Assembly: GCF_000003605.2 (NCBI RefSeq)
Contig: NW_003120386.1
Coordinates: 1-23,816, forward strand
Length of the DNA stretch: 23,816 bases
Origin: Saccoglossus kowalevskii
Lineage: Eukaryota; Hemichordata; Enteropneusta; Harrimaniidae
Direction: 5' to 3'
In this document: in pieces, positions 1 to 23,816 of the stretch
Position numbering within the stretch: the stretch's first letter is position 1
How the letters are laid out: each line of letters opens with the position of its first letter
Made by a program: the position numbers and the translations under genes
Notes under the pieces: generated by a model
Seen by the model: the letters and a program-made list of their open reading frames with translations, nothing else
The model's database searches: none
What the model was told of the DNA's origin: nothing

Positions 1-24
1 TGTATTATCCCATCTGAGGATGTA

Positions 25-4051: not shown

Positions 4052-4282
4052 TGTATTATCTCATCTGAGGATGTACACTGGTGTTATTCAAATTCTAGAC
4101 CAGTTGAGCTGCATTATCCCATCTGAGGATGTAACAGATGTGATTCAAATTTTAGACCAGTTAAGCTGTATTATCTCATCTGAGGATGTACACTGGTGTT
4201 ATTCAAATTCTAGACCAGTTTAGCTGTATTATCCCATCTGAGGATGTACACTGGTGTTATTCAAATTCTAGACCAGTTTAGC

Positions 4283-4332
4283 TGTATCATCGCATTTGAG
4301 GATGTATTATTCAAATTCTAGACCAGTTAATC
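4283..4332 (+). repeat. 50-bp short monomer m29, copy 2
   Basis: Same 8-bp deletion. Preceded by an m28 ending GTTTAGC (GTTTAGT in copy 1) and followed by an m30 with CATCGGAGG and GGATAAACAC. Belongs to the fused m31/m32 haplotype. Confidence 0.9.
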
Positions 4333-4390
4333 GGTATTATCCCATCGGAGGATAAACACTGGTGTTATTCAAATTCCAGACCAGTTAAGC

Positions 4391-4448
4391 TATATTATCC
4401 CATCTGAGGATATACACTGGTGTTATTCAAATTCGAGACCAGTTAAGC
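4391..4448 (+). repeat. Fused monomer m31/m32
   Basis: Begins TATATTATCCC (m31) and ends TTCGAGACCAG (m32), replacing two monomers by one. Also at 14450, 16065 and 17332, always with GGATAAACAC in the preceding m30 and AAATTTTAGACC in m26. In the unfused haplotype m31 has CCCGTCTGAGG. Confidence 0.82.
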
Positions 4449-4738
4449 TGTATTATCCCATCTGAGGATGTACACTGGTGTTATTCAAATTCTAGACCAG
4501 TTAATTTGTATTATCCTATCTGAGGATATACACTGGTGTTATTCAAATTCTAGACCAGGTAAGCTGCATTATCCCATCTGAAGATGTGAACAGATGTGAT
4601 TCAAATTCTAGGCCAGTTAAGCTGTCTCATTCCATCTGAGGATGTAAACTGATGTGATTCAAATTCTAGGCCAGTTAAGCTGTATCATCCCATCTGAGGA
4701 TGTAAACTGATGTGATTCAAATTCTAGGCCAGTTAAGC

Positions 4739-5260
4739 TGTATTATCCCATCTGAGGATATACACTGGTGTTATTTAAATTCTTGGCCAGGTAAGCTATG
4801 ATATCCCATCTGAAGATGTAAACTGTTGTGATTCAAATTCTGGCTCAGTTAAGCTGTATCATCCCATCTGAGGATGTAAACTGTTGTGATTCAAATTCTA
4901 GGCCAGTTAAGCTGTATCATCCCATCTGAGGATGTAAACTGATGTGATTCAAATTCTTGGCAAGTTAAGCTGTATTATCTCATCTGAGGATGTACACTGG
5001 TGTTATTCAATTTCTCGACCAGTTAAGTTGTATTATCTCATCTGAGGTTGTATACTGGTGTTATTCACATTCTAGGCCAGTTAAGCTGTATTATCCCATC
5101 TAAGGATGTAAACTGATGTGATTCAAATTCTAGGCCAGTTAAGCTGTATTATCCCATCTGAGGTTGTATACTGGCGTTATTCAAATTCTAGACCAGTTGA
5201 GCTGCATTATCCCATCTGAGGATGTAAACAGATGTGATTCAAATTCTAGACCAGTTAAGC
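4739..5260 (+). repeat. Higher-order segment m15-m23
   Basis: Nine 58-bp monomers. m15 here has TCTTGGCCAGG, m19 (4971) has TTCAATTTCTCG, and m22 (5145) has CCATCTGAGG rather than the usual CCAACTGAGG. The run ends at m23 and jumps to m2. The whole arrangement, joint included, recurs at 8555-9076 (shift 3,816), so the two are copies of one ancestral segment. Confidence 0.8.
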
Positions 5261-5897
5261 TGTATCATCCCATCTGAGGATATATACTGGTGTTATTCAA
5301 ATTCTAGATCAGTTAATCTGTATTATCCCATCTGAGGATATTCACTTGTGTTATTCAAATTCTAGACCAGTTAAACTGTATTATCCCATCTGAGGATGTA
5401 CACTGGTGTTATTCAAATTCTAGACCAGTTAATTTGTATTATCCTATCTGAGGATATACACTGGTGTTATTCAAATTCTAGACCAGGTAAGCTGCATTAT
5501 CCCATCTGAGGATGTGAACAGATGTGATTCAAATTCGAGACCAGTTAAGCTGTATTATCTCATCTGAGGTTGTTTACTGGTGTTATTCAAATTCTAGGCC
5601 AGGTAAGCTGTATCATCCCATCTGAGAATGTAAACAGATGTGATTCAAATTCTAAGCCAGTTAAGCTGTATCATCCCATCTGAGGATGTAAACTGATGTG
5701 ATTCAAATTCTAGACCAGTTAATCGGTATTATCCCATCTGAGGATGTAAACAGATGTGATTCAAATTCTAGACCAGTTAAGCTGTATTATCTCATCTGAG
5801 GATATACACTGGTGTTATTCAAATTCTAGACCAGTTGAGCTGCATTATCCCATCTGAGGATGTAACAGATGTGATTCAAATTCTAGACCAGTTTAGC
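5261..5897 (+). repeat. Higher-order segment m2-m8 with stacked hybrid monomers
   Basis: Eleven monomers (637 bp). m2 has TATATACTGG and m3 has CACTTGTG, as at 9077/9135. After m8 come four recombinant monomers in a row: 5667 (m9 head, m29-type tail GTTAATC), 5725 (m30 head GGTATT, m23 body), 5783 (m24 head, m25 tail) and 5841 (57-bp m26 with the m27 tail GTTTAGC). The m29-type tail is retained although m29 itself and m10-m22 are missing, which records an exchange between m9 and m29. Confidence 0.78.
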
Positions 5898-6129
5898 TGT
5901 ATTATCCCATCTGAGGTTGTTTACTGGTGTTATTCAAATTCTAGACCAGTTAAGCTGTATTATCCCATCTGAGGATGTAAACAGATGTGATTCAAATTCT
6001 AGGCCAGTTAAGCTGTATTATCCCATCTGAGGATATACACTGGTGTTATTTAAATTCTAGGCCAGGTAAGCTATGATATCCCATCTGAGGATGTAAACTG
6101 TTGTGATTCAAATTCTGGCTCAGTTAAGC

Positions 6130-6186
6130 TGTATCATCTCATCTGAGGATGTAAACTGATGTGATTCAATTTCTAGCCAGTTAAGC
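6130..6186 (+). repeat. 57-bp m12-like joint monomer
   Basis: Begins TGTATCATCTCATC, has m12-like CTGATGTG and TTCAATTTCTAGCCAG (one G lost, one A-to-T). It links m16 back to m13. Equivalent joint monomers are at 9948 (58 bp, same CATCTCATC) and 19536. Confidence 0.75.
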
Positions 6187-6244
6187 TGTATTATCCCATC
6201 TGAGGTTGTTTACTGGTGTTATTCAAATTCTAGACCAGTTAAGC

Positions 6245-6300
6245 TGTATATCCCATCTGAGGATGTAAACAGATATGATTCAAATTCTAGTCCAGTAAGC
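6245..6300 (+). repeat. 56-bp monomer m14 with two one-base losses
   Basis: Reads TGTATATCCC for TGTATTATCCC and CCAGTAAGC for CCAGTTAAGC, each losing one T from a TT pair; also has AGATATG and TAGTCC. Such homopolymer-length losses may be real slippage or sequencing error. Confidence 0.8.
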
Positions 6301-6474
6301 TGTATTATCCCATCTGAGGATATACACTGGTGTTATTTAAATTCTAGGCCAGGTAAGCTATGATATCCCATCTGAGGATGTACACTGGTGTTATTCAAAT
6401 TCTCGACCAGTTAAGTTGTATTATCTCATCTGAGGTTGTATACTGGTGTTATTCACATTCTAGGCCAGTTAAGC

Positions 6475-6533
6475 TGTATTATCCCATCTAAGGGATGTAA
6501 ACTGATGTGATTCAAATTCTAGGCCAGTTAAGC
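6475..6533 (+). repeat. 59-bp monomer m21 (extra G)
   Basis: CATCTAAGGGATG in place of CATCTAAGGATG. The rest is standard m21. Confidence 0.82.
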
Positions 6534-6880
6534 TGTATTATCCCAACTGAGGTTGTATACTGGCGTTATTCAAATTCTAGACCAGTTGAGCTGCATTATC
6601 CCATCTGAGGATGTAAACAGATGTGATTCAAATTCTAGACCAGTTAAGCTGTATTATCTCATCTGAGGATATACACTGGTGTTATTCAAATTCTAGACCA
6701 GTTGAGCTGCATTATCCCATCTGAGGATGTAACAGATGTGATTCAAATTCTAGACCAGTTAAGCTGTATTATCTCATCTGAGGATGTACACTAGTGTTAT
6801 TCAAATTCTAGACCAGTTTAGCTGTATTATCCCATCTGAGGATGTACACTGGTGTTATTCAAATTCTAGACCAGTTTAGT

Positions 6881-6930
6881 TGTATCATCGCATTTGAGGA
6901 TGTATTATTCAAATTCTAGACCAGTTAATC
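6881..6930 (+). repeat. 50-bp short monomer m29, copy 3
   Basis: Same deletion. Preceded by an m28 ending GTTTAGT as in copy 1; the following m30 has a private GGACATACAC. Confidence 0.9.
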
Positions 6931-7742
6931 GGTATTATCCCATCTGAGGACATACACTGGTGTTATTCAAATTCCAGACCAGTTAAGCTATATTATCCCG
7001 TCTGAGGATATACACTGGTGTTATTCTAATTCTAGATCAGTTAATCTGTATTATCCCATCTGAGGATATACACTGGTGTTATTCAAATTCGAGACCAGTT
7101 AAGCTGTATTATCCTATCTGAGGATGTACACTGGTGTTATTCAAATTCTAGACCAGTTAATTTGTATTATCCTACCTGAGGATATACACTGGTGTTATTC
7201 AAATTCTAGACCAGGTAAGCTGCATTATCCCATCTGAGGATGTGAACAGATGTGATTCAAATTCTAGGCCAGTTAAGCTGTCTCATTCCATCTGAGGATG
7301 TAAACTGATGTGATTCAAATTCTAGGCCAGTTAAGCTGTATTATCCCATCTGAGGATGTACACTGGTGTTATTCAAATTCTAGACCAGTTAATTTGTATT
7401 ATCCTATCTGAGGATATACACTGGTGTTATTCAAATTCTAGACCAGGTAAGCTGCATTATCCCATCTGAGGATGTGAACAGATGTGATTCAAATTCAAGA
7501 CCAGTTAAGCTGTATTATCTCATCTGAGGTTGTTTACTGGTGTTATTCAAATTCTAGGCCAGTTAAGCTGTATTATCTCATCTGAGGATGTAAACTGTTG
7601 TGATTCAAATTCTAGGCCAGTTAAGCTGTATTATCTCATCTGAGGATGTACACTGGTGTTATTCAAATTCTCGACAAGTTAAGTTGTATTATCCCATCTG
7701 AGGTTGTATACTGGCGTTATTCAAATACTAGACCAGTTAAGC

Positions 7743-9076
7743 TGTATTATCCCATCTGAGGATGTAAACTGGTGTTATTCAAATTCTAGACCAGTTAAGC
7801 TGTATCATCCCATTTGAGGATATACACTGGTGTTATTCAAATTCTAGATCAGTTAATCTGTATTATCCCATCTGAGGATATTCACTGGTGTTATTCAAAT
7901 TCTAGACCAGTTAAACTGTATTATCCCATCTGAGGATGTACACTGGTGTTATTCAAATTCTAGACCAGTTAATTTGTATTATCCTATCTGAGGATATACA
8001 CTGGTGTTATTCAAATTCTAGACCAGGTAAGCTGCATTATCCCATCTGAGGATGTGAACAGATGTGACTCAAATTCGAGACCAGTTAAGCTGTATTATCT
8101 CATCTGAGGTTGTTTACTGGTGTTATTCAAATTCTAGGCCAGGTAAGCTGTATCATCCAATCTGAGAATGTAAACAGATGTGATTCAAATTCTAAGCCAG
8201 TTAAGCTGTATCATCCCATCTGAGGATGTAAACTGATGTGATTCAAATTCTAGACCAGGTAAGCTGCATTATCTCATCTGTGGATGTGAACAGATATGAT
8301 TCAAATTCTAGGCCAGGTAAGCTGTATCATCCCATCTGAGGATGTAAACAGATGTGATTCAAATTCTAAGCCAGTTAAGCTGTATCATCCCATCTGAGGA
8401 TGTAAACTGATGTGATTCAAATTCTAGGCCAGTTAAGCTGTATTATCCCATCTGAGGTTGTTTACTGGTGTTATTCAAATTCTAGACCAGTTAAGCTGTA
8501 TTATCCCATCTGAGGATGTAAACAGATGTGATTCAAATTCTAGGCCAGTTAAGCTGTATTATCCCATCTGAGGATATACACTGGTGTTATTTAAATTCTA
8601 GACCAGGTAAGCTATGATATCCCATCTGAGGATGTAAACTGTTGTGATTCAAATTCTGGCTCAGTTAAGCTGTATCATCCCATCTGAGGATGTAAACTGT
8701 TGTGATTCAAGTTCTAGGCCAGTTAAGCTGTATCATCCCATCTGAGGATGTAAACTGATGTGATTCAAATTCTAGGCAAGTTAAGCTGTATTATCTCATC
8801 TGAGGATGTACACTGGTGTTATTCAATTTCTCGACCAGTTAAGTTGTATTATCTCATCTGAGGTTGTATACTGGTGTTATTCACATTCTAGGCCAGTTAA
8901 GCTGTATTATCCCATCTAAGGATGTAAACTGATGTGATTCAAATTCTAGGCCAGTTAAGCTGTATTATCCCATCTGAGGTTGTATACTGGCGTTATTCAA
9001 ATTCTAGACCAGTTGAGCTGCATTATCCCATCTGAGGATGTAAACAGATGTGATTCAAATTCTAGACCAGTTAAGC
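7743..9076 (+). repeat. Higher-order segment m1-m23
   Basis: Twenty-three consecutive 58-bp monomers (1,334 bp), the longest perfect-order stretch outside the reference unit. Unlike 1-1905 it keeps m6-m7 and ends m5 with GACCAGG. Private changes include CATTTGAGG in m2 (7801), GTGACTC in m6 (8033), TCCAATCTG in m8 (8149) and CTGTGG in m10 (8265). m23 is followed by m2 of the next segment, skipping m24-m1. Confidence 0.84.
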
Positions 9077-9947
9077 TGTATCATCCCATCTGAGGATATA
9101 TACTGGTGTTATTCAAATTCTAGATCAGTTAATCTGTATTATCCCATCTGAGGATATTCACTTGTGTTATTCAAATTCTAGACCAGTTAAACTGTATTAT
9201 CCCATCTGAGGATGTACACTGGTGTTATTCAAATTCTAGACCAGTTAATTTGTATTATCCTATCTGAGGATATACACTGGTGTTATTCAAATTCTAGACC
9301 AGGTAAGCTGCATTATCCCATCTGAGGATGTGAACAGATGTGATTCAAATTCGAGACCAGTTAAGCTGTATTATCTCATCTGAGGTTGTTTACTGGTGTT
9401 ATTCAAATTCTAGGCCAGGTAAGCTGTATCATCCCATCTGAGAATGTAAACAGATGTGATTCAAATTCTAAGCCAGTTAAGCTGTATCATCCCATCTGAG
9501 GATGTAAACTGATGTGATTCAAATTGTAGACCAGGTAAGCTGCATTATCTCATCTGAGGATGTGAACAGATATGATTCAAATTCTAGGCCAGGTAAGCTG
9601 TATCATCCCATCTGAGGATGTAAACAGATGTGATTCAAATTCTAAGCCAGTTAAGCTGTATCATCCCATCTGAGGATGTAAACTGATGTGATTCAAATTC
9701 TAGGCCAGTTAAGCTGTATTATCCCATCTGAGGTTGTTTACTGGTGTTATTCAAATTCTAGACCAGTTAAGCTGTATTATCCCATCTGAGGATGTAAACA
9801 GATGTGATTCAAATTCTAGGCCAGTTAAGCTGTATTATCCCATCTGAGGGATATACACTGGTGTTATTTAAATTCTAGGCCAGGTAAGCTATGATATCCC
9901 ATCTGAGGATGTAAACTGTTGTGATTCAAATTCTGGCTCAGTTAAGC
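9077..9947 (+). repeat. Higher-order segment m2-m16
   Basis: Fifteen monomers, 871 bp, all in order. m3 has the CACTTGTG variant shared only with 5319. m15 (9831) has one extra G (GAGGGATAT), making it 59 bp. The segment ends at m16 and jumps back to an m12-like monomer. Confidence 0.83.
9831..9889 (+). repeat. 59-bp monomer m15 (extra G)
   Basis: CTGAGGGATATAC in place of CTGAGGATATAC. The rest is standard m15, including TTATTTAAATTC and the CCAGGTAAGC tail. Confidence 0.82.
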
Positions 9948-10701
9948 TGTATCATCTCATCTGAGGATGTAAACTGATGTGATTCAAATTCTAGGCCAGT
10001 TAAGCTGTATTATCCCATCTGAGGTTGTTTACTGGTGTTATTCAAATTCTAGACCAGTTAAGCTGTATTATCCCATCTGAGGATGTAAACAGATGTGATT
10101 CAAATTCTAGGCCAGTTAAGCTGTATTATCCCATCTGAGGATATACACTGGTGTTATTTAAATTCTAGGCCAGGTAAGCTATGATATCCCATCTGAGGAT
10201 GTAAACTGTTGTGATTCAAATTCTGGCTCAGTTAAGCTGTATCATCCCATCTGAGGATGTAAACTGTTGTGGTTCAAATTCTAGGCCAGTTAAGCTGTAT
10301 CATCCCATCCGAGGATGTAAACTGATGTGATTCAAATTCTAGGCAAGTTAAGCTGTATTATCTCATCTGAGGATGTACACTGGTGTTATTCAAATTCTCG
10401 ACCAGTTAAGTTGTATTATCTCATCTGAGGTTGTATACTGGTGTTATTCACATTCTAGGCCAGTTAAGCTGTGTTATCCCATCTAAGGATGTAAACTGAT
10501 GTGATTCAAATTCTAGGCCAGTTAAGCTGTATTATCCCAACTGAGGTTGTATACTGGCGTTATTCAAATTCTAGACCAGTTGAGCTGCATTATCCCATCT
10601 GAGGATGTAAACAGATGTGATTCAAATTCTAGACCAGTTAAGCTGTATTATCTCATCTGAGGATATACACTGGTGTTATTCAAATTCTAGGCCAGTTAAG
10701 C
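9948..10701 (+). repeat. Higher-order segment m12/m17 hybrid, m13-m24
   Basis: Thirteen monomers, 754 bp. The first (9948) begins TGTATCATCTCATC with an m12 body, exactly like the joint monomer at 6130; m13-m16 then follow a second time. Its m17 GTGGTTC (10238) and m21 TGTGTTATCC (10470) link it to 2718/2950 and 22195/22427. m18 has a private CATCCGAGG. Confidence 0.81.
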
Positions 10702-11339
10702 TGTATTATCTCATCTGAGGATGTACACTGGTGTTATTCAAATTCTAGACCAGGTAAGCTATGATATCCCATCTGAGGATGTAAACTGTTGTGATTCAAA
10801 TTCTGGCTCAGTTAAGCTGTATCATCCCATCTGAGGATGTAAACTGTTGTGATTCAAGTTCTAGGCCAGTTAAGCTGTATCATCCCATCTGAGCATGTAA
10901 ACTGATGTGATTCAAATTCTAGGCAAGTTAAGCTGTATTATCTCATCTGAGGATGTACACTGGTGTTATTTAAATTCTCGACCAGTTAAGTTGTATTATC
11001 TCATCTGAGGTTGTATACTGGTGTTATTCACATTCTAGGCCAGTTAAGCTGTATTATCCCATCTAAGGATGTAAACTGATGTGATTCAAATTCTAGGCCA
11101 GTTAAGCTGTATTATCCCAACTGAGGTTGTATACTGGCGTTATTCAAATTCTAGACCAGTTGAGCTGCATTATCCCATCTGAGGATGTAAACAGATGTGA
11201 TTCAAATTCTAGACCAGTTAAGCTGTATTATCTCATCTGAGGATATACACTGGTGTTATTCAAATTCTAGGCCAGTTAAGCTGTATTATCTCATCTGAGG
11301 ATGTACACTGGTGTTATTCAAATTCTAGACCAGTTGAGC
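10702..11339 (+). repeat. Higher-order segment m25/m15 hybrid, m16-m25
   Basis: Eleven 58-bp monomers. It opens with the same m25-head/m15-tail hybrid as 3066. Here m24 precedes it, so this copy shows the original exchange point, and the 3066 copy has since lost m23-m24. It carries the m17 CAAGTTC and m18 GAGCATG variants and ends with a normal m25 (GTTGAGC tail). Confidence 0.81.
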
Positions 11340-11395
11340 TATATATCTGTCTGAGGATATACACTGGTGTTATTTAAATTCTAGATCAGTTAATC
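11340..11395 (+). repeat. 56-bp degraded m31-head/m2-tail monomer
   Basis: Starts TATATATCTGTCTGAGG, most like m31 (TATATTATCCCGTCTGAGG) with two bases lost and a change, then has TTATTTAAATTCTAGATC and a TTAATC tail leading into m3. It follows an m25 tail. Confidence 0.72.
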
Positions 11396-12091
11396 TGTAT
11401 TATCCCATCTGAGGATATTCACTGGTGTTATTCAAATTCTAGACCAGTTAAACTGTATTATCCCATCTGAGGATGTACACTGGTGTTATTCAAATTCTAG
11501 ACCAGTTAATTTGTATTATCCTATCTGAGGATATACACTGGTGTTATTCACATTCTAGACCAGGTAAGCTGCATTATCCCATCTGAGGATGTGAACAGAT
11601 GTGATTCAAATTCGAGACCAGTTAAGCTGTATTATCTCATCTGAGGTTGTTTACTGGTGTTATTCAAATTCTAGGCCAGTTAATCTGTATTATCTCATCT
11701 GAGGATGTAAACAGATATGATTCAAATTCTAGGCCAGGTAAGCTGTATCATCCCATCTGAGAATGTAAACAGATGTGATTCAAATTCTAAGCCAGTTAAG
11801 CTGTATCATCCCATCTGAGGATGTAAACTGATGTGATTCAAATTCTAGACCAGGTAAGCTGCATTATCTCATCTGAGGATGTGAACAGATATGATTCAAA
11901 TTCTAGGCCAGTTAAGCTGTATTATCTCATCTAAGGATGTAAACTGTTGTGATTCAAATTCTCGACAAGTTAAGTTGTATTATCCCATCTGAGGTTGTAT
12001 ACTGGCGTTATTCAAATTCTAGGCCAGTTAAGCTGTATTATCCCATCTGAGGTTGTATACTGGCGTTATTCAAATTCTAGGCCAGTTCAGC
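11340..12091 (+). repeat. Scrambled segment: m31/m2 hybrid, m3-m7, m10-like, m8-m10, m41/m42 hybrid, m43-like pair
   Basis: Thirteen monomers (752 bp), the least orderly part of the window. The first (11340) is 56 bp, with a degraded m31-like head (TATATATCTGTCTG) and an m2 tail. m7 (11628) has a GTTAATC tail and is followed by an m10-like monomer (11686) before m8, so m8-m10 are framed by m10 types. At 11918 an m41 body carrying a CATCTAAGG variant joins an m42 tail (TCTCGACAAG). Two m43-like monomers (11976, 12034) then stand side by side, the second with a GTTCAGC tail that recurs only at 14798. Confidence 0.75.
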
Positions 12092-12900
12092 TGTATTATC
12101 CCATCTGAGGATGTGAACAGATATGATTCAAATTCTAGGCCAGGTAAGCTGTATCATCCCATCTGAGGATGTAAACAGATGTGATTCAAATTCTAAGCCA
12201 GTTAAGCTGTATCATCCCATCTGAGGATGTAAACTGATGTGATTCAAATTCTAGGCCAGTTAAGCTGTATTATCCCATCTGAGGTTGTTTACTGGTGTTA
12301 TTCAAATTATAGACCAGTTAAGCTGTATTATCCCATCTGAGGATGTAAACAGATGTGATTCAAATTCTAGGCCAGTTAAGCTGTATTATCCCATCTGAGG
12401 ATATACACTGGTGTTATTTAAATTCTAGGCCAGGTAAGCTATGATATCCCATCTGAGGATGTAAACTGTTGTGATTCAAATTCTGGCTCAGTTAAGCTGT
12501 ATCATCCCATCTGAGGATGTAAACTGTTGTGATTCAAGTTCTAGGCCAGTTAAGCTGTATCATCCCATCTGAGCATGTAAACTGATGTGATTCAAATTCT
12601 AGGCAAGTTAAGCTGTATTATCTCATCTGAGGATGTACACTGGTGTTATTTAAATTCTCGACCCGTTAAGTTGTATTATCTCATCTGAGGTTGTATACTG
12701 GTGTTATTCACATTCTAGGCCAGTTAAGCTGTATTATCCCATCTAAAGATGTAAACTGATGTGATTCAAATTCTAGCCAGTTAAGCTGTATTATCCCAAC
12801 TGAGTTGTATACTGGCGTTATTCAATCCTAGACCAGTTGAGCTGCATTATCCCATCTGAGGATGTAAACAGATGTGATTCAAATTCTAGACCAGTTAAGC
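12092..12900 (+). repeat. Higher-order segment m10-m23 with a cluster of indels
   Basis: Fourteen monomers, 809 bp. Its first monomer begins TGTATTATCCC instead of the usual m10 TGCATTATCTC, as at 14856. Two neighbours near the end have lost bases: m21 (12730, 57 bp, CTAGCCAG) and m22 (12787, 56 bp, CTGAGTTG and TTCAATCCTAG). m24-m26 are missing after m23. Confidence 0.79.
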
Positions 12901-12958
12901 TGTATATCTCATCTGAGGATGTACACTGGTGTTATTCAAATTTCTAGACCAGTTTAGC
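12730..12958 (+). repeat. Indel cluster over four monomers (12730, 12787, 12843, 12901)
   Basis: Three of four successive monomers carry small indels: 12730 is 57 bp (TAGCCAG), 12787 is 56 bp (CTGAGTTG, TTCAATCCTAG), 12843 is intact and 12901 has one loss and one gain (TGTATATCTC, AAATTTCTAG). Most are changes in the length of 2-3 base runs. This density is far above the array average. Confidence 0.78.
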
Positions 12959-13530
12959 TGTATTATCCCATCTGAGGATGTACACTGGTGTTATTCAAAT
13001 TCTAGACCAGTTTAGCTGTATCATCGCATTTGAGGATGTATTATTCAAATTCTAGACCAGTTAATCGGTATTATCCCATCTGAGGACAAACACTGGTGTT
13101 ATTCAAATTCCAGACCAGTTAAGCTATATTATCCCGTCTGAGGATATACACTGGTGTTATTCAAATTCTAGATCAGTTAATCTGTATTATCCCATCTGAG
13201 GATATACACTGGTGTTATTCAAATTCGAGACCAGTTAAGCTGTATTATCCTATCTGAGGATGTACACTGGTGTTATTCAAATTCTAGACCAGTTAATTTG
13301 TATTATCCTATCTGAGGATATACACTGGTGTTATTCAAATTCTAGACCAGGTAAGCTGCATTATCCCATCTGAGGATGTGAACAGATGTGATTCAAATTC
13401 TAAGCCAGTTAAGCTGTCTCATTCCATCTGAGGATGTAAACTGATGTGATTCAAATTCTAGTCCACTTAAGCTGTATTATCCCATCTGAGGATGTACACT
13501 GGTGTTGTTCAAATTCTAGACCAGTTAATT
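12901..13530 (+). repeat. Higher-order segment m27-m37
   Basis: Eleven monomers, 630 bp, haplotype with separate m31 (13125) and m32 (13183) and m30 with GGACAAACAC. The first monomer has one base lost and one gained (TGTATATCTC, AAATTTCTAG), so it is still 58 bp. m36 (13415) has GTCCACTTAAGC, shared only with 16297. m37 has a private TTGTTCAAATTC. Confidence 0.8.
13017..13066 (+). repeat. 50-bp short monomer m29, copy 4
   Basis: Same deletion, 6,136 bp after copy 3, the largest gap between these markers. The 57-bp m26 that normally lies 173 bp upstream is missing because m23 joins m27 directly. Confidence 0.9.
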
Positions 13531-14797
13531 TGTATTATCCTATCTGAGGATATACACTGGTGTTATTTAAATTCTAGGCCAGGTAAGCTATGATATCCCA
13601 TCTGAGGATGTAAACTGTTGTGATTCAAATTCTGGCTCAGTTAAGCTGTATCATCCCATCTGAGGATGTAAACTGTTGTGATTCAAGTTCTAGGCCAGTT
13701 AAGCTGTATCATCCCATCTGAGCATGTAAACTGATGTGATTCAAATTCTAGGCAAGTTAAGCTGTATTATCTCATCTGAGGATGTACACTGGTGTTATTT
13801 AAATTCTCGACCAGTTAAGTTGTATTATCTCATCTGAGGTTGTATACTGGTGTTATTCACATTCTAGGCCAGTTAAGCTGTATTATCCCATCTAAGGATG
13901 TAAACTGATGTGATTCAAATTCTAGGCCAGTTAAGCTGTATTATCCCAACTGAGGTTGTATACTGGCGTTATTCAAATTCTAGACCAGTTGAGCTGCATT
14001 ATCCCATCTGAGGATGTAAACAGATGTGATTCAAATTCTAGACCAGTTAAGCTGTATTATCTCATCTGAGGATATACACTGGTGTTATTCAAATTCTAGG
14101 CCAGTTAAGCTGTATTATCTCATCTGAGGATGTACACTGGTGTTATTCAAATTCTAGACCAGTTGAGCTGCATTATCCCATCTGAGGATGTAACAGATGT
14201 GATTCAAATTTTAGACCAGTTAAGCTGTATTATCTCATCTGAGGATGTACACTGGTGTTATTCAAATTCTAGACCAGTTTAGCTGTATTATCCCATCTGA
14301 GGATGTACACTGGTGTTATTCAAATTCTAGACCAGTTTAGCTGTATCATCGCATTTGAGGATGTATTATTCAAATTCTAGACCAGTTAATCGGTATTATC
14401 CCATCTGAGGATAAACACTGGTGTTATTCAAATTCCAGACCAGTTAAGCTATATTATCCCATCTGAGGATATACACTGGTGTTATTCAAATTCGAGACCA
14501 GTTAAGCTGTATTATCCCATCTGAGGATGTACACTGGTGTTATTCAAATTCTAGACCAGTTAATTTGTATTATCCTATCTGAGGATATACACTGGTGTTA
14601 TTCAAATTCTAGACCAGGTAAGCTGCATTATCCCATCTGAGGATGTGAACAGATGTGATTCAAATTCTAGGCCAGTTAAGCTGTCTCATTCCATCTGAGG
14701 ATGTAAACTGATGTGATTCAAATTCTAGGCCAGTTAAGCTGTATCATCCCATCTGAGGATGTAAACTGATGTGATTCAAATTCTAGGCCAGTTAAGC
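13531..14797 (+). repeat. 1,267-bp unit (22 monomers), first of a near-identical pair
   Basis: Order: m38/m15 hybrid, m16-m30, fused m31/m32, m33-m36, m12-like. The same 22 monomers recur at 16413-17679 (shift 2,882). Reading both through, I find one difference (T14191 versus A17073, in the 57-bp m26). Identity continues 23 bases into the next monomer, to 14820, so about 1,290 bp match. The hybrid first monomer (CCTATCTGAGG head, TTATTTAAATTC body, CCAGGTAAGC tail) is common to both copies. Confidence 0.87.
14342..14391 (+). repeat. 50-bp short monomer m29, copy 5
   Basis: Same deletion, followed by m30 with GGATAAACAC and the fused m31/m32. Confidence 0.9.
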
Positions 14798-15956
14798 TGT
14801 ATTATCCCATCTGAGGTTGTATACTGGCGTTATTCAAATTCTAGGCCAGTTCAGCTGTATTATCCCATCTGAGGATGTGAACAGATATGATTCAAATTCT
14901 AGGCCAGGTAAGCTGTATCATCCCATCTGAGGATGTAAACAGATGTGATTCAAATTCTAAGCCAGTTAAGCTGTATCATCCCATCTGAGGATGTAAACTG
15001 ATGTGATTCAAATTCTAGGCCAGTTAAGCTGTATTATCCCATCTGAGGTTGTTTACTGGTGTTATTCAAATTCTAGACCAGTTAAGCTGTATTATCCCAT
15101 CTGAGGATGTAAACAGATGTGATTCAAATTCTAGGCCAGTTAAGCTGTATTATCCCATCTGAGGATATACACTGGTGTTATTTAAATTCTAGACCAGGTA
15201 AGCTATGATATCCCATCTGAGGATGTAAACTGTTGTGATTCAAATTCTGGCTCAGTTAAGCTGTATCATCCCATCTGAGGATGTAAACTGTTGTGATTCA
15301 AGTTCTAGGCCAGTTAAGCTGTATCATCCCATCTGAGGATGTAAACTGATGTGATTCAAATTCTAGGCAAGTTAAGCTGTATTATCTCATCTGAGGATGT
15401 ACACTGGTGTTATTCAATTTCTCGACCAGTTAAGTTGTATTATCTCATCTGAGGTTGTATACTGGTGTTATTCACATTCTAGGCCAGTTAAGCTGTATTA
15501 TCCCATCTAAGGATGTAAACTGATGTGATTCAAATTCTAGGCCAGTTAAGCTGTATTATCCCAACTGAGGTTGTATACTGGCGTTATTCAAATCCTAGAC
15601 CAGTTGAGCTGCATTATCCCATCTGAGGATGTAAACAGATGTGATTCAAATTCTAGACCAGTTAAGCTGTATTATCTCATCTGAGGATATACACTGGTGT
15701 TATTCAAATTCTAGGCCAGTTAAGCTGTATTATCTCATCTGAGGATGTACACTGGTGTTATTCAAATTCTAGACCAGTTGAGCTGCATTATCCCATCTGA
15801 GGATGTAACAGATGTGATTCAAATTTTAGACCAGTTAAGCTGTATTATCTCATCTGAGGATGTACACTGGTGTTATTCAAATTCTAGACCAGTTTAGCTG
15901 TATTATCCCATCTGAGGATGTACACTGGTGTTATTCAAATTCTAGACCAGTTTAGC

Positions 15957-16006
15957 TGTATCATCGCATTTGAGGATGTATTATTCAAATTCTAGACCAG
16001 TTAATC
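15957..16006 (+). repeat. 50-bp short monomer m29, copy 6
   Basis: Same deletion and same following haplotype as copy 5, 1,615 bp downstream of it. Confidence 0.9.
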
Positions 16007-16214
16007 GGTATTATCCCATCTGAGGATAAACACTGGTGTTATTCAAATTCCAGACCAGTTAAGCTATATTATCCCATCTGAGGATATACACTGGTGTTAT
16101 TCAAATTCGAGACCAGTTAAGCTGTATTATTCCATCTGAGGATGTACACTGGTGTTATTCAAATTCTAGACCAGTTAATTTATATTATCCTATCTGAGGA
16201 TATACACTGGTGTT

Positions 16215-16222
16215 ATGCAAAT
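16215..16222 (+). other. Perfect POU octamer ATGCAAAT created by a private change
   Basis: In the m34 at 16181 the usual TTATTCAAATTC reads TTATGCAAATTC. Every normal monomer core (ATTCAAAT) is one base from the octamer; here a single T-to-G completes it. Probably chance, as it occurs once. Confidence 0.4.
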
Positions 16223-16412
16223 TCTAGACCAGGTAAGCTGCATTATCCCATCTGAGGATGTGAACAGATGTGATTCAAATTCTAGGCCAGTTAAGCTGTC
16301 TCATTCCATCTGAGGATGTAAACTGATGTGATTCAAATTCTAGTCCACTTAAGCTGTATTATCCCATCTGAGGATGTACACTGGTGTTATTTAAATTCTC
16401 GACCAGTTAAGT

Positions 16413-17679
16413 TGTATTATCCTATCTGAGGATATACACTGGTGTTATTTAAATTCTAGGCCAGGTAAGCTATGATATCCCATCTGAGGATGTAAACTGT
16501 TGTGATTCAAATTCTGGCTCAGTTAAGCTGTATCATCCCATCTGAGGATGTAAACTGTTGTGATTCAAGTTCTAGGCCAGTTAAGCTGTATCATCCCATC
16601 TGAGCATGTAAACTGATGTGATTCAAATTCTAGGCAAGTTAAGCTGTATTATCTCATCTGAGGATGTACACTGGTGTTATTTAAATTCTCGACCAGTTAA
16701 GTTGTATTATCTCATCTGAGGTTGTATACTGGTGTTATTCACATTCTAGGCCAGTTAAGCTGTATTATCCCATCTAAGGATGTAAACTGATGTGATTCAA
16801 ATTCTAGGCCAGTTAAGCTGTATTATCCCAACTGAGGTTGTATACTGGCGTTATTCAAATTCTAGACCAGTTGAGCTGCATTATCCCATCTGAGGATGTA
16901 AACAGATGTGATTCAAATTCTAGACCAGTTAAGCTGTATTATCTCATCTGAGGATATACACTGGTGTTATTCAAATTCTAGGCCAGTTAAGCTGTATTAT
17001 CTCATCTGAGGATGTACACTGGTGTTATTCAAATTCTAGACCAGTTGAGCTGCATTATCCCATCTGAGGATGAAACAGATGTGATTCAAATTTTAGACCA
17101 GTTAAGCTGTATTATCTCATCTGAGGATGTACACTGGTGTTATTCAAATTCTAGACCAGTTTAGCTGTATTATCCCATCTGAGGATGTACACTGGTGTTA
17201 TTCAAATTCTAGACCAGTTTAGCTGTATCATCGCATTTGAGGATGTATTATTCAAATTCTAGACCAGTTAATCGGTATTATCCCATCTGAGGATAAACAC
17301 TGGTGTTATTCAAATTCCAGACCAGTTAAGCTATATTATCCCATCTGAGGATATACACTGGTGTTATTCAAATTCGAGACCAGTTAAGCTGTATTATCCC
17401 ATCTGAGGATGTACACTGGTGTTATTCAAATTCTAGACCAGTTAATTTGTATTATCCTATCTGAGGATATACACTGGTGTTATTCAAATTCTAGACCAGG
17501 TAAGCTGCATTATCCCATCTGAGGATGTGAACAGATGTGATTCAAATTCTAGGCCAGTTAAGCTGTCTCATTCCATCTGAGGATGTAAACTGATGTGATT
17601 CAAATTCTAGGCCAGTTAAGCTGTATCATCCCATCTGAGGATGTAAACTGATGTGATTCAAATTCTAGGCCAGTTAAGC
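16413..17679 (+). repeat. 1,267-bp unit (22 monomers), second of the near-identical pair
   Basis: Same monomer order as 13531-14797. The single substitution seen (A17073 for T14191) turns GATGTAACAG into GATGAAACAG. The copies diverge again at 17703, where this one continues as m13 (TTGTTTACTGG) and the other as an m43-like monomer (TTGTATACTGG). Confidence 0.87.
17224..17273 (+). repeat. 50-bp short monomer m29, copy 7
   Basis: Same deletion, 1,267 bp after copy 6. Lies inside the duplicate of 13531-14820. Confidence 0.9.
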
Positions 17680-18375
17680 TGTATTATCCCATCTGAGGTT
17701 GTTTACTGGTGTTATTCAAATTCTAGACCAGTTAAGCTGTATTATCCCATCTGAGGATGTAAACAGATGTGATTCAAATTCTAGGCCAGTTAAGCTGTAT
17801 TATCCCATCTGAGGATATACACTGGTGTTATTTAAATTCTAGGCCAGGTAAGCTATGATATCCCATCTGAGGATGTAAACTGTTGTGATTCAAATTCTGG
17901 CTCAGTTAAGCTGTATCATCCCATCTGAGGATGTAAACTGTTGTGATTCAAATTCTAGGCCAGTTAAGCTGTATCATCCCATCTGAGGATGTAAACTGAT
18001 GTGATTCAAATTCTAGGCAAGTTAAGCTGTATTATCTCATCTGAGGATGTACACTGGTGTTATTCAATTTCTCGACCAGTTAAGTTGTATTATCTCATCT
18101 GAGGTTGTATACTGGTGTTATTCACATTCTAGGCCAGTTAAGCTGTATTATCCCATCTAAGGATGTAAACTGATGTGATTCAAATTCTAGGCCAGTTAAG
18201 CTGTATTATCCCATCTGAGGTTGTATACTGGCGTTATTCAAATTCTAGACCAGTTGAGCTGCATTATCCCATCTGAGGATGTAAACAGATGTGATTCAAA
18301 TTCTAGACCAGTTAAGCTGTATTATCTCATCTGAGGATATACACTGGTGTTATTCAAATTCTAGACCAGCTGAGC
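17680..18375 (+). repeat. Higher-order segment m13-m23 with terminal m24/m25 hybrid
   Basis: Twelve 58-bp monomers. It follows an m12-like monomer, so the order m12-m13 is restored by the joint. m17 is CAAATTC, m19 has TTCAATTTCTCG and m22 has CCATCTGAGG, the same set as at 4855-5145. The last monomer (18318) has a private GCTGAGC tail and is followed by m1. Confidence 0.81.
18318..18375 (+). repeat. Hybrid m24/m25 monomer with GCTGAGC tail leading into m1
   Basis: Head as m24 (CTCATCTGAGGATATACAC), tail close to m25 (GACCAGTTGAGC) but with C for T (CAGCTGAGC). It is the only monomer other than m43 seen to precede m1. Confidence 0.75.
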
Positions 18376-18955
18376 TGTATTATCCCATCTGAGGATGTAA
18401 ACTGGTGTTATTCAAATTCTAGACCAGTTAAGCTGTATCATCCCATCTGAGGATATATACTGGTGTTATTCAAATTCTAGATCAGTTAATCTGTATTATC
18501 CCATCTGAGGATATTCACTGGTGTTATTCAAATTCTAGACCAGTTAAACTGTATTATCCCATCTGAGGATGTACACTGGTGTTATTCAAATTCTAGACCA
18601 GTTAATTTGTATTATCCTATCTGAGGATATACACTGGTGTTATTCAAATTCTAGACCAGGTAAGCTGCATTATCCCATCTGAGGATGTGAACAGATGTGA
18701 TTCAAATTCGAGACCAGTTAAGCTGTATTATCTCATCTGAGGTTGTTTACTGGTGTTATTCAAATTCTAGGCCAGGTAAGCTGTATCATCCCATCTGAGA
18801 ATGTAAACAGATGTGATTCAAATTCTAAGCCAGTTAAGCTGTATCATCCCATCTGAGGATGTAAACTGATGTGATTCAAATTCTAGACCAGGTAAGCTGC
18901 ATTATCTCATCTGAGGATGTGAACAGATATGATTCAAATTCTAGGCCAGGTAAGC
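18376..18955 (+). repeat. Higher-order segment m1-m10
   Basis: Ten monomers in order. m2 has TATATACTGG (shared with 5261 and 9077) but m3 has the ordinary CACTGGTG. Here m1 is preceded by an m24/m25 hybrid rather than m43. The m23-m24-m1-m2 order seen here could be the parent of the shorter m23-m2 joints at 5261 and 9077. Confidence 0.82.
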
Positions 18956-19303
18956 TGTATCATCCCATCTGAGGATGTAAACTGTTGTGATTCAAATTCT
19001 GGCTCAGTTAAGCTGTATCATCCCATCTGAGGATGTAAACTGTTGTGATTCAAATTCTAGGCCAGTTAAGCTGTATCATCCCATCTGAGGATGTAAACTG
19101 ATGTGATTCAAATTCTAGGCAAGTTAAGCTGTATTATCTCATCTGAGGATGTACACTGGTGTTATTCAATTTCTCGACCAGTTAAGTTGTATTATCTCAT
19201 CTGAGGTTGTATACTGGTGTTATTCACATTCTAGGCCAGTTAAGCTGTATTATCCCATCTAAGGATGTAAACTGATGTGATTCAAATTCTAGGCCAGTTA
19301 AGC
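18956..19303 (+). repeat. Higher-order segment m11/m16 hybrid, m17-m21
   Basis: Six monomers. The first (18956) has an m11-like head (TGTATCATCCC) and an m16 body and tail (CTGTTGTGATTC, TCTGGCTCAG), so m11-m15 were lost in one in-register exchange. m17 has CAAATTC and m19 has TTCAATTTCTCG. Confidence 0.79.
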
Positions 19304-19361
19304 TGTATTATCCTATCTGAGGATTTTCACTGGTGTTATTCAAATTCTAGACCAGTTAAGC
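19304..19361 (+). repeat. Orphan monomer with GGATTTTCACTGG
   Basis: It does not match any of the 43 variants. The middle is one base from m3 (GGATATTCACTGG), the head CCTATCTGAGG is that of m5, m33, m34 or m38, and the tail GACCAGTTAAGC is common to several. It separates m21 from m14, so it may be a multi-way recombinant or come from a unit not represented in this window. Confidence 0.65.
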
Positions 19362-19825
19362 TGTATTATCCCATCTGAGGATGTAAACAGATGTGATTCA
19401 AATTCTAGGCCAGTTAAGCTGTATTATCCCATCTGAGGATATACACTGGTGTTATTTAAATTCTAGGCCAGGTAAGCTATGATATCCCATCTGAGGATGT
19501 AAACTGTTGTGATTCAAATTCTGGCTCAGTTAAGCTGTATCATCCCATCTGAGGATGTAAACTGATGTGATTCAAATTCTAGGCCAGTTAAGCTGTATTA
19601 TCCCATCTGAGGTTGTTTACTGGTGTTATTCAAATTCTAGACCAGTTAAGCTGTATTATCCCATCTGAGGATGTAAACAGATATGATTCAAATTCTAGGC
19701 CAGTTAAGCTGTATTATCCCATCTGAGGATATACACTGGTGTTATTTAAATTCTAGGCCAGGTAAGCTATGATATCCCATCTGAGGATGTAAACTGTTGT
19801 GATTCAAATTGTGGCTCAGTTAAGC
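19304..19825 (+). repeat. Segment with unusual monomer, then m14-m16, m12/m17, m13-m16
   Basis: Nine monomers (522 bp). The first (19304) is unlike any other: a CCTATCTGAGG head, GGATTTTCACTGG in the middle (nearest m3, GGATATTCACTGG) and an m1/m13-like tail. It is followed by the m12-m16 pentamer arrangement found at 5898 and 9657, period 290 bp here. m14 (19652) has AGATATG and the second m16 (19768) has ATTGTGGCTC. Confidence 0.78.
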
Positions 19826-21266
19826 TGTATCATCCCATCTGAAGATGTAAACTGATGTGATTCAAATTCTAGGTAAGTTAAGCTGTATTATCTCATCTGA
19901 GGATGTACACTGGTGTTATTCAAATTCTCGACCAGTTAAGTTGTATTATCTCATCTGAGGTTGTATACTGGTGTTATTCACATTCTAGGCCAGTTAAGCT
20001 GTATTATCCCATCTAAGGATGTAAACTGATGTGATTCAAATTCTAGGCCAGTTAAGCTGTATTATCCCAACTGAGGTTGTATACTGGCGTTATTCAAATT
20101 CTAGACCAGTTGAGCTGCATTATCCCATCTGAGGATGTAAACAGATGTGATTCAAATTCTAGACCAGTTAAGCTGTATTATCTCATCTGAGGATATACAC
20201 TGGTGTTATTCAAATTCTAGACCAGTTGAGCTGCATTATCCCATCTGAGGATGTAACAGATGTGATTCAAATTCTAGACCAGTTAAGCTGTATTATCTCA
20301 TCTGAGGATGTACACTGGTGTTATTCAAATTCTAGACCAGTTTAGCTGTATTATCCCATCTGAGGATGTACACTGGTGTTATTCAAATTCTAGACCAGTT
20401 TAGCTGTATCATCGCATTTGAGGATGTATTATTCAAATTCTAGACCAGTTAATCGGTATTATCCCATCTGAGGACAAACACTGGTGTTATTCAAATTCCA
20501 GACCAGTTAAGCTATATTATCCCGTCTGAGGATATACACTGGTGTTATTCTAATTCTAGATCAGTTAATCTGTATTATCCCATCTGAGGATATACACTGG
20601 TGTTATTCAAATTCGAGACCAGTTAAGCTGTATTATCCTATCTGAGGATGTACACTGGTGTTATTCAAATTCTAGATCAGTTAATTTGTATTATCCTACC
20701 TGAGGATATACACTGGTGTTATTCAAATTCTAGACCAGGTAAGCTGCATTATCCCATCTGAGGATGTGAACAGATGTGATTCAAATTCTAGGCCAGTTAA
20801 GCTGTCTCATTCCATCTGAGGATGTAAACTGATGTGATTCAAATTCTAGGCCAGTTAAGCTGTATTATCCCATCTGAGGATGTACACTGGTGTTATTCAA
20901 ATTCTAGACCAGTTAATTTGTATTATCCTATCTGAGGATATACACTGGTGTTATTCAAATTCTAGACCAGGTAAGCTGCATTATCCCATCTGAGGATGTG
21001 AACAGATGTGATTCAAATTCAAGACCAGTTAAGCTGTATTATCTCATCTGAGGTTGTTTACTGGTGTTATTCAAATTCTAGTCCAGTTAAGCTGTATTAT
21101 CTCATCTGAGGATGTAAACTGTTGTGATTCAAATTCTAGGCCAGTTAAGCTGTATTATCTCATCTGAGGATGTACACTGGTGTTATTCAAATTCTCGACA
21201 AGTTAAGTTGTATTATCCCATCTGAGGTTGTATACTGGCGTTATTCAAATACTAGACCAGTTAAGC
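19826..21266 (+). repeat. Higher-order segment m18-m24, m26-m43
   Basis: Twenty-five monomers, 1,441 bp. m18 (19826) has GAAGATG and CTAGGTAAG. From m22 (20058) it is collinear with 6534-7742 at a shift of 13,524, including the shared rare variants in m31 (20513) and m34 (20687). m24 and m25 are fused as in 1-1905. It ends in a true m43-to-m1 joint at 21267. Confidence 0.83.
20405..20454 (+). repeat. 50-bp short monomer m29, copy 8
   Basis: Same deletion, followed by m30 with GGACAAACAC and separate m31 and m32. Confidence 0.9.
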
Positions 21267-23750
21267 TGTATTATCCCATCTGAGGATGTAAACTGGTGTT
21301 ATTCAAATTCTATACCAGTTAAGCTGTATCATCCCATCTGAGGATATACACTGGTGTTATTCAAATTCTAGATCAGTTAATCTGTATTATCCCATCTGAG
21401 GATATTCACTGGTGTTATTCAAATTCTAGACCAGTTAAACTGTATTATCCCATCTGAGGATGTACACTGGTGTTATTCAAATTCTAAACCAGTTAATTTG
21501 TATTATCCTATCTGAGGATATACACTGGTGTTATTCAAATTCTAGACCAGGTAAGCTGCATTATCCCATCTGAGGATGTGAACAGATGTGATTCAAATTC
21601 GAGACCAGTTAAGCTGTATTATCTCATCTGAGGTTGTTTACTGGTGTTATTCAAATTCTAGGCCAGGTAAGCTGTATCATCCCATCTGAGAATGTAAACA
21701 GATGTGATTCAAATTCTAAGCCAGTTAAGCTGTATCATCCCATCTGAGGATGTAAACTGATGTGATTCAAATTCTAGACCAGGTAAGCTGCATTATCTCA
21801 TCTGAGGATGTGAACAGATATGATTCAAATTCTAGGCCAGGTAAGCTGTATCATCCCATCTGAGGATGTAAACAGATGTGATTCAAATTCTAAGCCAGTT
21901 AAGCTGTATCATCCCATCTGAGGATGTAAACTGATGTGATTCAAATTCTAGGCCAGTTAAGCTGTATTATCCCATCTGAGGTTGTTTACTGGTGTTATTC
22001 AAATTCTAGACCAGTTAAGCTGTATTATCCCATCTGAGGATGTAAACAGATGTGATTCAAATTCTAGGCCAGTTAAGCTGTATTATCCCATCTGAGGATA
22101 TACACTGGTGTTATTTAAATTCTAGGCCAGGTAAGCTATGACATCCCATCTGAGGATGTAAACTGTTGTGATTCAAATTCTGGCTCAGTTAAGCTGTATC
22201 ATCCCATCTGAGGATGTAAACTGTTGTGGTTCAAATTCTAGGCCAGTTAAGCTGTATCATCCCATCTGAGCATGTCAACTGATGTGATTCAAATTCTAGG
22301 CAAGTTAAGCTGTATTATCTCATCTGAGGATGTACACTGGTGTTATTCAAATTCTCGACCAGTTAAGTTGTATTATCTCATCTGAGGTTGTATACTGGTG
22401 TTATTCACATTCTAGGCCAGTTAAGCTGTGTTATCCCATCTAAGGATGTAAACTGATGTGATTCAAATTCTAGGCCAGTTAAGCTGTATTATCCCAACTG
22501 AGGTTGTATACTGGCGTTATTCAAATTCTAGACCAGTTGAGCTGCATTATCCCATCTGAGGATGTAAACAGATGTGATTCAAATTCTAGACCAGTTAAGC
22601 TGTATTATCTCATCTGAGGATATACACTGGTGTTATTCAAATTCTAGGCCAGTTAAGCTGTATTATCTCATCTGAGGATGTACACTGGTGTTATTCAAAT
22701 TCTAGACCAGTTGAGCTGCATTATCCCATCTGAGGATGTAACAGATGTGATTCAAATTCTAGACAAGTTAAGCTGTATTATCTCATCTGAGGATGTACAC
22801 TGGTGTTATTCAAATTCTAGACCAGTTTAGCTGTATTATCCCATCTGAGGATGTACACTGGTGTTATTCAAATTCTAGACCAGTTTAGCTGTATCATCGC
22901 ATTTGAGGATGTATTATTCAAATTCTAGACCAGTTAATCGGTATTATCCCATCTGAGGATAAACACTGGTGTTATTCAAATTCCAGACCAGTTAAGCTAT
23001 ATTATCCCGTCTGAGGATATACACTGGTGTTATTCAAATTCTAGATCAGTTAATCTGTATTATCCCATCTGAGGATATACACTGGTGTTATTCAAATTCG
23101 AGACCAGTTAAGCTGTATTATCCTATCTGAGGATGTACACTGGTGTTATTCAAATTCTAGACCAGTTAATTTGTATTATCCTATCTGAGGATATACACTG
23201 GTGTTATTCAAATTCTAGACCAGGTAAGCTGCATTATCCAATCTGAGGATGTGAACAGATGTGATTCAAATTCTAGGCCAGTTAAGCTGTCTCATTCCAT
23301 CTGAGGATGTAAACTGATGTGAATCAAATATAGGCCAGTTAAGCTGTATTATCCCATCTGAGGATGTACACTGGTGTTATTCAAATTCTAGACCAGTTAA
23401 TTTGTATTATCCTATCTGAGGATATACACTGGTGTTATTCAAATTCTAGACCAGGTAAGCTGCATTATCCCATCTGAGGATGTGAACAGATGTGATTCAA
23501 ATTCAAGACCAGTTAAGCTGTATTATCTCATCTGAGGTTGTTTACTGGTGTTATTCAAATTCTAGGCCAGTTAAGCTGTATTATCTCATCTGAGGATGTA
23601 AACTGTTGTGATTCAAATTCTAGGCCAGTTAAGCTGTATTATCTTATCTGAGGATGTACACCGGTGTTATTCAAATTCTCGACATGTTAAGTTGTATTAT
23701 CCCATCTGAGGTTGTATACTGGCGTTATTCAAATTCTAGGCCAGTTAAGC
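21267..23750 (+). repeat. Complete 43-monomer higher-order repeat (reference unit m1-m43)
   Basis: This is the only stretch in which all 43 monomer variants occur once and in order, so I use it to number the array. Starts include m1 21267, m5 21499, m8 21673, m15 22079 (TTATTTAAATTC), m16 22137 (normally TATGATATCC, here TATGACATCC), m18 22253 (GAGCATG), m20 22369 (TTCACATTC), m22 22485 (CCAACTGAGG, GGCGTT), m26 22717 (57 bp), m29 22890 (50 bp), m30 22940 (begins GGTATT), m36 23288 (TGTCTCATTCC, here 57 bp), m43 23693. The length, 2,484 bp, equals 43 x 58 minus 10. About 26 monomers are class A and 17 class B. The preceding joint (m43 to m1 at 21267) also occurs at 1906 and 7743, which supports m1 as a true neighbour of m43. 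The last monomer, m43, has a TAGGCC tail unlike other m43 copies and leads into an m21-type monomer, so the next unit is out of phase. Confidence 0.85.
22890..22939 (+). repeat. 50-bp short monomer m29, copy 9
   Basis: Same deletion, 2,485 bp after copy 8, which is one full 43-monomer cycle. Followed by an m30 of the GGATAAACAC type but with separate m31 and m32, so it looks recombinant between the two haplotypes. Confidence 0.9.
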
Positions 23751-23816
23751 TGTATTATCCCATCTAAGGATGTAAACTGATGTGATTCAAATTCTAGGCC
23801 AGTAAGCTGTATTATC
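23751..23816 (+). repeat. Start of a further segment: m21-type monomer plus 9 bases
   Basis: The monomer at 23751 has CATCTAAGG, diagnostic of m21, and ends CCAGTAAGC (57 bp, one T lost). The next copy is cut by the window edge after TGTATTATC. The array therefore continues, out of phase with the preceding 43-mer. Confidence 0.8.

What the first reader, a model, noticed from the sequence alone, without database searches (positions are those of the whole stretch)
21267..23750. A 43-monomer, 2,484-bp higher-order repeat built from a 58-bp satellite
Forty-three recognisable variants occur in fixed order, and every other part of the window is a collinear subset. Higher-order units with this many monomers are unusually complex compared with well-known cases such as human alpha satellite, where units of roughly 2-20 monomers are typical and the low thirties are exceptional. 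I do not recognise the family, so it may be undescribed.
Basis: partly seen in the sequence, partly recalled or inferred. Interest (0 to 1): 0.75.

Follow-up and report, generated by a model that had tools for sequence, protein, structure and literature searches.

The report
Mosaic 43-unit repeat in private minisatellite
This contig, probably from an acorn worm, is one long tandem array of a 58-base repeat whose variants follow a scrambled 43-step order; such composite repeats are a known product of repeated duplication and unequal recombination, so the find is ordinary in kind.

Summary
The observation largely holds. The window is a whole contig (23,816 bp) of a 58-bp repeat. Window 21267-23750 is exactly 43 monomers. 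The 368 monomers before it thread onto that cycle with 36 jumps in 367 steps and 1.5% mismatch; 30 shuffles averaged 129 jumps. Forty-three is a local optimum of unit length, and 19 monomers repeat directly at lag 43 with 1.45% divergence.

Three corrections. The unit is complete only once; 43 is 19 of 368 recurrence distances, while 22 is commonest. Some jumps are most simply backward, as duplications, so the rest is not just a collinear subset. The unit repeats monomer types inside itself (40 distinct phase consensi): a 'cascading' repeat. Orangutan units of 45-84 monomers are published.

Two monomer patterns hit the assembly 375 and 338 times, exactly the counts in this contig. Seven of 22 sampled contigs are likewise arrays of other short units. 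The mitochondrial contig points to a Saccoglossus-like acorn worm. Best reading: a single-locus minisatellite shaped by unequal exchange.

The parts
1..23816 (+). whole contig: tandem array of a 58-bp monomer, 412 monomers and a 9-base stub, one orientation
   Evidence: TRF 412.2 copies, 86% matches; segmentation; core 13-mer 264 times on + and 0 on -; window is all of contig C1294
   Evidence: monomers 368-410; inside the longest run, monomers 349-410
20174..21266 (+). phases 25-43 directly before the complete unit; matches 22659-23750 at lag 43
   Evidence: 19 monomers, 1.45% divergence
6650..9076 (+). second longest collinear run, 42 monomers (phases 25-43 then 1-23)
   Evidence: monomers 115-156
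6359..9076 (+). 47-monomer block whose copy starts at 19884, 0.88% diverged, shared jump pattern
697..2195 (+). 26-monomer block with copies starting at 6534 and 20058 (0.53% and 0.66% diverged); holds one of the four 43->1 closures
22890..22939 (+). example of the 50-bp monomer variant (8-bp deletion, phase 29); nine copies in the window, no other exact match of its pattern in the assembly
12787..12842 (+). one of three 56-bp monomers with small indels

Best explanation
It is a single-locus, non-coding minisatellite array in a hemichordate genome (probably an acorn worm close to Saccoglossus). A 58-bp monomer first diverged into roughly 40 types. Blocks of tens of monomers were then copied and deleted in 58-bp register by unequal exchange or replication slippage. 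This left one run in which the cycle closes at 43 monomers and many shorter or rearranged derivatives. The 43-mer is the longest surviving form, not the working period of the array. The array most likely has no sequence-specific function. Shown: register, low divergence between same-phase copies, shared junctions, hybrid monomers at a minority of junctions, confinement to one contig of this assembly. Inferred: unequal exchange or slippage as the cause, absence of function, host name.
For: The 58-bp register is kept across the jumps, apart from small indels. Same-phase divergence is 1.6% against 13.7% between phases and does not depend on distance (rank correlation -0.03). Long blocks are duplicated with their jumps: 47 monomers at 0.88%, 29 at 0.95%, 26 at 0.53-0.66%. 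36 jumps fall into 25 junction types, seven of them seen 2-4 times. A two-parent monomer lowers mismatches by 2 or more at 5 of 36 junctions against 12 of 2000 control places. Two generic monomer patterns give 375 and 338 hits in the assembly, equal to the counts in the window; the nine hits of the 50-bp variant are also all here. No ORF of 80 aa or more; no Rfam match. Simulated random segment duplication and deletion gave unit-length dips at least as sharp as the observed 5.1% in 3 of 10 finished runs, at other lengths.
Against: At 31 of 36 junctions no clear hybrid monomer is seen, and at several (e.g. monomers 53, 101, 196, 334) the monomer fits poorly either way. Junctions are where the threading found misfits, so the hybrid control is not fully fair. 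In all 10 finished simulations the cost at 43 was higher (555-2020 against 493) and so was the lowest cost over the lengths scanned (452-1644 against 449), so the real array is more orderly than these simulated ones; they were also more diverged (0.153-0.251 against 0.134), scanned at every second start, and 2 of 12 runs did not finish (real values). The contig has no unique flank, so 'single locus' rests on this assembly, which may lack much satellite DNA. Patterns of 34-35 letters with up to 3 mismatches would miss distant relatives; the one whole-genome similarity search was not scored.
Confidence: 0.72

Rival explanations
1. It is the edge of a true centromeric higher-order array of one chromosome. 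Complete 43-mers lie in the unassembled core, and this contig is the degenerate flank.
For: The most complete order is at the right end: the 62-monomer run is 20174-23750, just before the contig ends. Chromosome-specific higher-order arrays occur in primates (recalled). CpG-poor, AT-rich array. The real array is more orderly than 10 of 10 finished simulations of random block duplication.
Against: The last full monomer (411) does not continue the unit as phase 1; it is nearest to phase 21 with 2 mismatches. No CENP-B box (not a universal feature). Same-phase divergence does not rise with distance. No hit on another contig, and arrays of other units fill other contigs.
Confidence: 0.17
2. The mosaic order is an assembly artefact: reads from several loci or two haplotypes were joined wrongly in a repeat.
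For: The contig consists of repeat only and has no unique flank. It is 23.8 kb long, and other arrays in the assembly also fill the stretches read of their contigs.
Against: Jumps recur in several places with the same neighbours (seven junction types seen 2-4 times), the 58-bp register is kept apart from small indels, and nine copies of the 50-bp variant keep phase. No N in the window.
Confidence: 0.09
3. The contig belongs to a contaminating organism, which would explain why the family was found nowhere else in the assembly.
For: Confinement to one contig. CpG o/e of 0.10 against 0.80-1.36 in seven sampled contigs that are not whole arrays of short units.
Against: Similar low CpG is seen in other whole-stretch arrays of the assembly (0.02-0.14 in six, 0.48 in one). 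Several unrelated arrays would all have to be contaminants.
Confidence: 0.02

Closest known systems
Cascading alpha-satellite higher-order repeats (orangutan Y 58mer and 45mer; PMC12428378, abstract and passages)
   Same: Long unit of tens of monomers; some monomer types occur more than once inside the unit; variants arise by duplication or deletion of rows; copies of one position differ little (0.25% and 0.81% there, 1.6% here).
   Different: Those are about 171-bp alpha-satellite monomers in centromeres; the 58mer has 46 canonical copies by the abstract. Here there is one complete copy, a 58-bp monomer, and no evidence of a centromere.
Classical (Willard-type) higher-order repeats, e.g. the human Y 34mer (named in PMC12428378)
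   Same: Fixed order of diverged monomers with low divergence between copies of the same position.
   Different: In the classical type each monomer type occurs once per unit and units repeat regularly; here types repeat inside the unit and the period is not regular.
Large minisatellite arrays with variant-repeat maps (recalled class, no call)
   Same: Short unit, one place in the genome, interspersed variants, segmental duplications within the array.
   Different: Unit at the upper end of the range that I recall for minisatellites, and long collinear blocks of 20-47 monomers.

Membership tests
Higher-order repeat (general) | Same-position copies far more alike than different monomers | tested here: met
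   1.6% against 13.7% divergence
Higher-order repeat (general) | Monomers follow a fixed successor order | tested here: met
   successor kept in 72-74% of steps against 20-23% shuffled; 331 of 367 steps on the cycle
Higher-order repeat (general) | The unit itself is repeated in tandem with a regular period | tested here: not met
   one complete unit; the longest run is 62 monomers, 1.44 units; 43 is 19 of 368 recurrence distances
Cascading higher-order repeat | Monomer types repeated inside the unit | tested here: met
   phases 4-7 recur as about 33-35 and 37-40; phases 5, 34 and 38 have identical consensi
Centromeric satellite | CENP-A chromatin or location at the primary constriction | not testable with these tools
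   no unique flank, no ChIP or FISH data
Centromeric satellite | CENP-B box (in primates; not universal; motif recalled) | tested here: not met
   0 exact matches to the core pattern on either strand
Single-locus minisatellite array | Confined to one place in the genome | tested here: met
   375 and 338 pattern hits in the assembly, the same counts as in the window; holds for this assembly and up to 3 mismatches only

The most novel reading that the evidence does not exclude
This acorn-worm genome holds many unrelated, CpG-poor minisatellite arrays, each perhaps private to one contig as this one is, several with long collinear monomer order. If each marks one chromosome's centromere, the species would have chromosome-specific, sequence-unrelated centromeric satellites with very long cascading units, in a phylum for which my paper searches listed no description of centromere DNA.
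Probability: 0.08. Interest if true: 0.6.

Novelty: new member of a known kind. Interest (0 to 1): 0.22.

Why it matters
It is a clean small example of how block duplication and deletion can build a long apparent higher-order unit from a short repeat, in a deuterostome phylum with little satellite work in the papers that I could search. It also warns that 'number of monomers per unit' can be read off one surviving run without the array being periodic at that length.

Tried and rejected
Coding array: rejected, no ORF of 80 aa or more in six frames, and 58 is not a multiple of 3. Structured RNA family: no Rfam match at gathering score. Mobile, phage or plasmid origin: no blastn match of 21267-23750 in 50,697 phage and 72,556 plasmid records, no exact match of one 32-letter monomer pattern in viral contigs. 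Telomere-derived: no run of two or more TTAGGG, CCCTAA or TTAGG on the + strand. Dyad symmetry of the monomer: not above shuffles (122 of 200 reach it). Origin from a doubled ~29-bp half: weak support only (4 of 300 shuffles reach the best half-half score; TRF rows of 27-29 bp at 58-61% matches). Lancelet host: first guess, dropped after passages of PMC2034537 (the three Asymmetron mitogenomes there are 15.05-15.10 kb with other gene orders). Relation of neighbouring satellites to the 58-bp unit: none beyond 8-base matches among five consensi. Whether neighbouring arrays are also private to their contigs: asked for one of them, not answered.

Papers: PMC12428378 (outline with abstract, passages); PMC2034537 and PMC3121625 (passages); PMC12385485, PMC11050224, PMC13081366, PMC3218096, PMC9734144 and the rest only in search listings. 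Searches for a 58-bp satellite and for satellites in hemichordates or Saccoglossus listed no paper describing this repeat by title or start of abstract; the listed papers were not opened for it, and one search listed 10 of 505.

Full report
WHAT IS THERE. The window is the whole of contig C1294 (23,816 bp) of a 572-Mb, 4,830-contig assembly. Tandem Repeats Finder reads it as 412.2 copies of a 58-bp unit. Segmentation against the consensus gives 412 full monomers and a 9-base stub: 385 of 58 bp, thirteen of 57, nine of 50, three of 56 and two of 59. The core 13-mer occurs 264 times on one strand and never on the other. There is no ORF of 80 aa or more and no Rfam match.

THE 43-MONOMER CLAIM. 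Coordinates 21267-23750 contain exactly 43 monomers, 2,484 bp. I threaded the 368 monomers before it on the cyclic 43-mer with a jump cost of 6 mismatches: 36 jumps in 367 transitions and 314 mismatches (1.47% per base). Thirty random orders of the same monomers gave a mean of 129 jumps (minimum 118) and 1,102 mismatches. Nine other 43-monomer stretches used as the unit gave 51-69 jumps. Successor order is strongly fixed. At lag 43, 20174-21266 and 22659-23750 match over 19 monomers with 1.45% divergence. So the cycle length is real in this stretch.

LIMITS OF THE CLAIM. The array is not periodic at 43. Only 1 of 37 collinear runs reaches 43 (62 monomers, including the reference unit), the next is 42, then 24 and 21. 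Of 368 recurrence distances, 50 are 22, 24 are 28 and 19 are 43. Over the window lag 43 averages 7.51 mismatches per monomer against about 7.8 for all pairs, while lag 234 averages 6.1-6.3. Positions 12-23 occur 13-17 times each, positions 38-43 four to five times. Some jumps are most simply backward, hence duplications rather than omissions. Inside the unit 41 sequences are distinct, 36 clusters remain at one mismatch and 32 at two, and 40 of 43 phase consensi are distinct. Three of the four 43-to-1 closures (monomers 33, 134, 368) lie in copies of one 26-monomer block, so the closure has few independent witnesses.

HOW IT AROSE. Same-phase copies differ by 1.6% (2,088 pairs), different phases by 13.7%, with no dependence on distance. 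Seven pairs of blocks of 21-47 monomers are repeated with 0.5-1.1% divergence, some carrying their jumps along, and 36 jumps reduce to 25 types. At 5 of 36 junctions a monomer made of two parents fits better by at least 2 mismatches; the same test at non-junctions succeeds in 12 of 2,000. That control is lenient, since junctions are where misfits were found, and several junction monomers fit poorly either way. This is what in-register unequal exchange or slippage could leave (Smith's model, recalled). A rough simulation of random block duplication and deletion gave unit-length dips at least as sharp as the real one (5.1%) in 3 of 10 finished runs, at lengths 21, 24 and 41; a sharp unit length therefore needs no special process. 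Against this, all 10 simulated arrays cost more than the real one at length 43 (555-2020 against 493) and at their best length (452-1644 against 449), so the real array is more orderly; they were also more diverged.

WHERE IT IS. Two generic monomer patterns with up to 3 mismatches hit the assembly 375 and 338 times, none on the reverse strand; the window alone holds 375 and 338 (the listings show only the first places, the counts are whole). Nine exact hits of the 50-bp variant all lie here. The family is thus private to one contig of this assembly at that stringency. I sampled 22 other contigs, many next to the window in numbering, so not a random sample (first 10 kb of 14; first 3 kb of 8); five read only N and three partly N. 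Seven (C1200, C1250, C1289-C1293) are tandem repeats over essentially all of the stretch read, with units of 35, 44, 38, 61, 27, 91 and 40 bp. Five consensi (window and C1290-C1293) show no relation beyond 8-base matches. Of the four examined for order, three (C1290, C1291, C1293) show collinear runs well above one shuffled order (21 against 5, 22 against 9, 32 against 9) and one (C1292) does not (37 against 34).

CpG. CpG o/e is 0.10 in the window, 0.02-0.14 in six of the seven other arrays and 0.48 in C1250; it is 0.80-1.36 in seven further N-free contigs. Two of those seven are themselves repeat-rich (C2500, 95% covered by TRF, 1.19; C1288, 79%, 1.23), so scarcity of CpG is not a property of every tandem array here. 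TpG and CpA are not consistently raised, so methylation decay is only one possible cause; chance absence of CpG in the founding unit is another.

HOST. The mitochondrial contig C4830 (17,037 bp) has COX1 on the opposite strand to most long ORFs. In five genes AGA stands at Ser sites (2 cases), AGG is unused, AAA stands at Lys sites, and ATA often stands where Ile is usual (sites judged from memory of animal sequences). ARAGORN finds tRNA-Lys with anticodon TTT. Table 3 of PMC3121625 (passage seen) gives this combination (AUA Ile, AAA Lys, AGG absent, AGA Ser, UUU) for Saccoglossus kowalevskii and for none of the other rows that I saw (Rhabdopleura, Balanoglossus, Echinodermata); the tail of the table was not shown. 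The host is therefore probably an enteropneust near Saccoglossus. I did not compare the sequence with a named record.

WHAT IS KNOWN. Higher-order units of this size are in print: a cascading 58mer with 44 monomer types and a 45mer on orangutan Y, with preliminary units up to 84 (PMC12428378, abstract and passages), and a human chromosome 21 52mer by title (PMC12385485, listing). Like those orangutan units, this one repeats types inside itself; unlike the 58mer, it is complete only once. No listed paper described this repeat by title or start of abstract, but eukaryotic satellite libraries could not be searched.

VERDICT.

Noticed in passing
L013-L016, L027, L033, L034 (contigs C1290-C1293, C1289, C1250, C1200): Seven of 22 sampled contigs are tandem arrays of other short units (61, 27, 91, 40, 38, 44, 35 bp) over the stretch read, six of them almost free of CpG; three of four tested show collinear monomer order above one shuffle.
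   Followed up: partly
L033 1-3000 (contig C1250): The 44-bp array changes orientation near base 2194: the consensus of the second part is the reverse complement of the first.
   Followed up: no
L011-L012 (contig C4830, 17,037 bp): Rearranged deuterostome-type mitochondrial genome with COX1 on the opposite strand to most long ORFs.
   Followed up: partly
window 1044-1093, 4283-4332, 6881-6930, 13017-13066, 14342-14391, 15957-16006, 17224-17273, 20405-20454, 22890-22939: Nine 50-bp monomers with the same 8-bp loss, at the same phase of the cycle: a useful marker of block copying.
   Followed up: yes
window 1-23816: CpG o/e is 0.10 while seven sampled contigs that are not short-unit arrays have 0.80-1.36; cause not settled.
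   Followed up: partly
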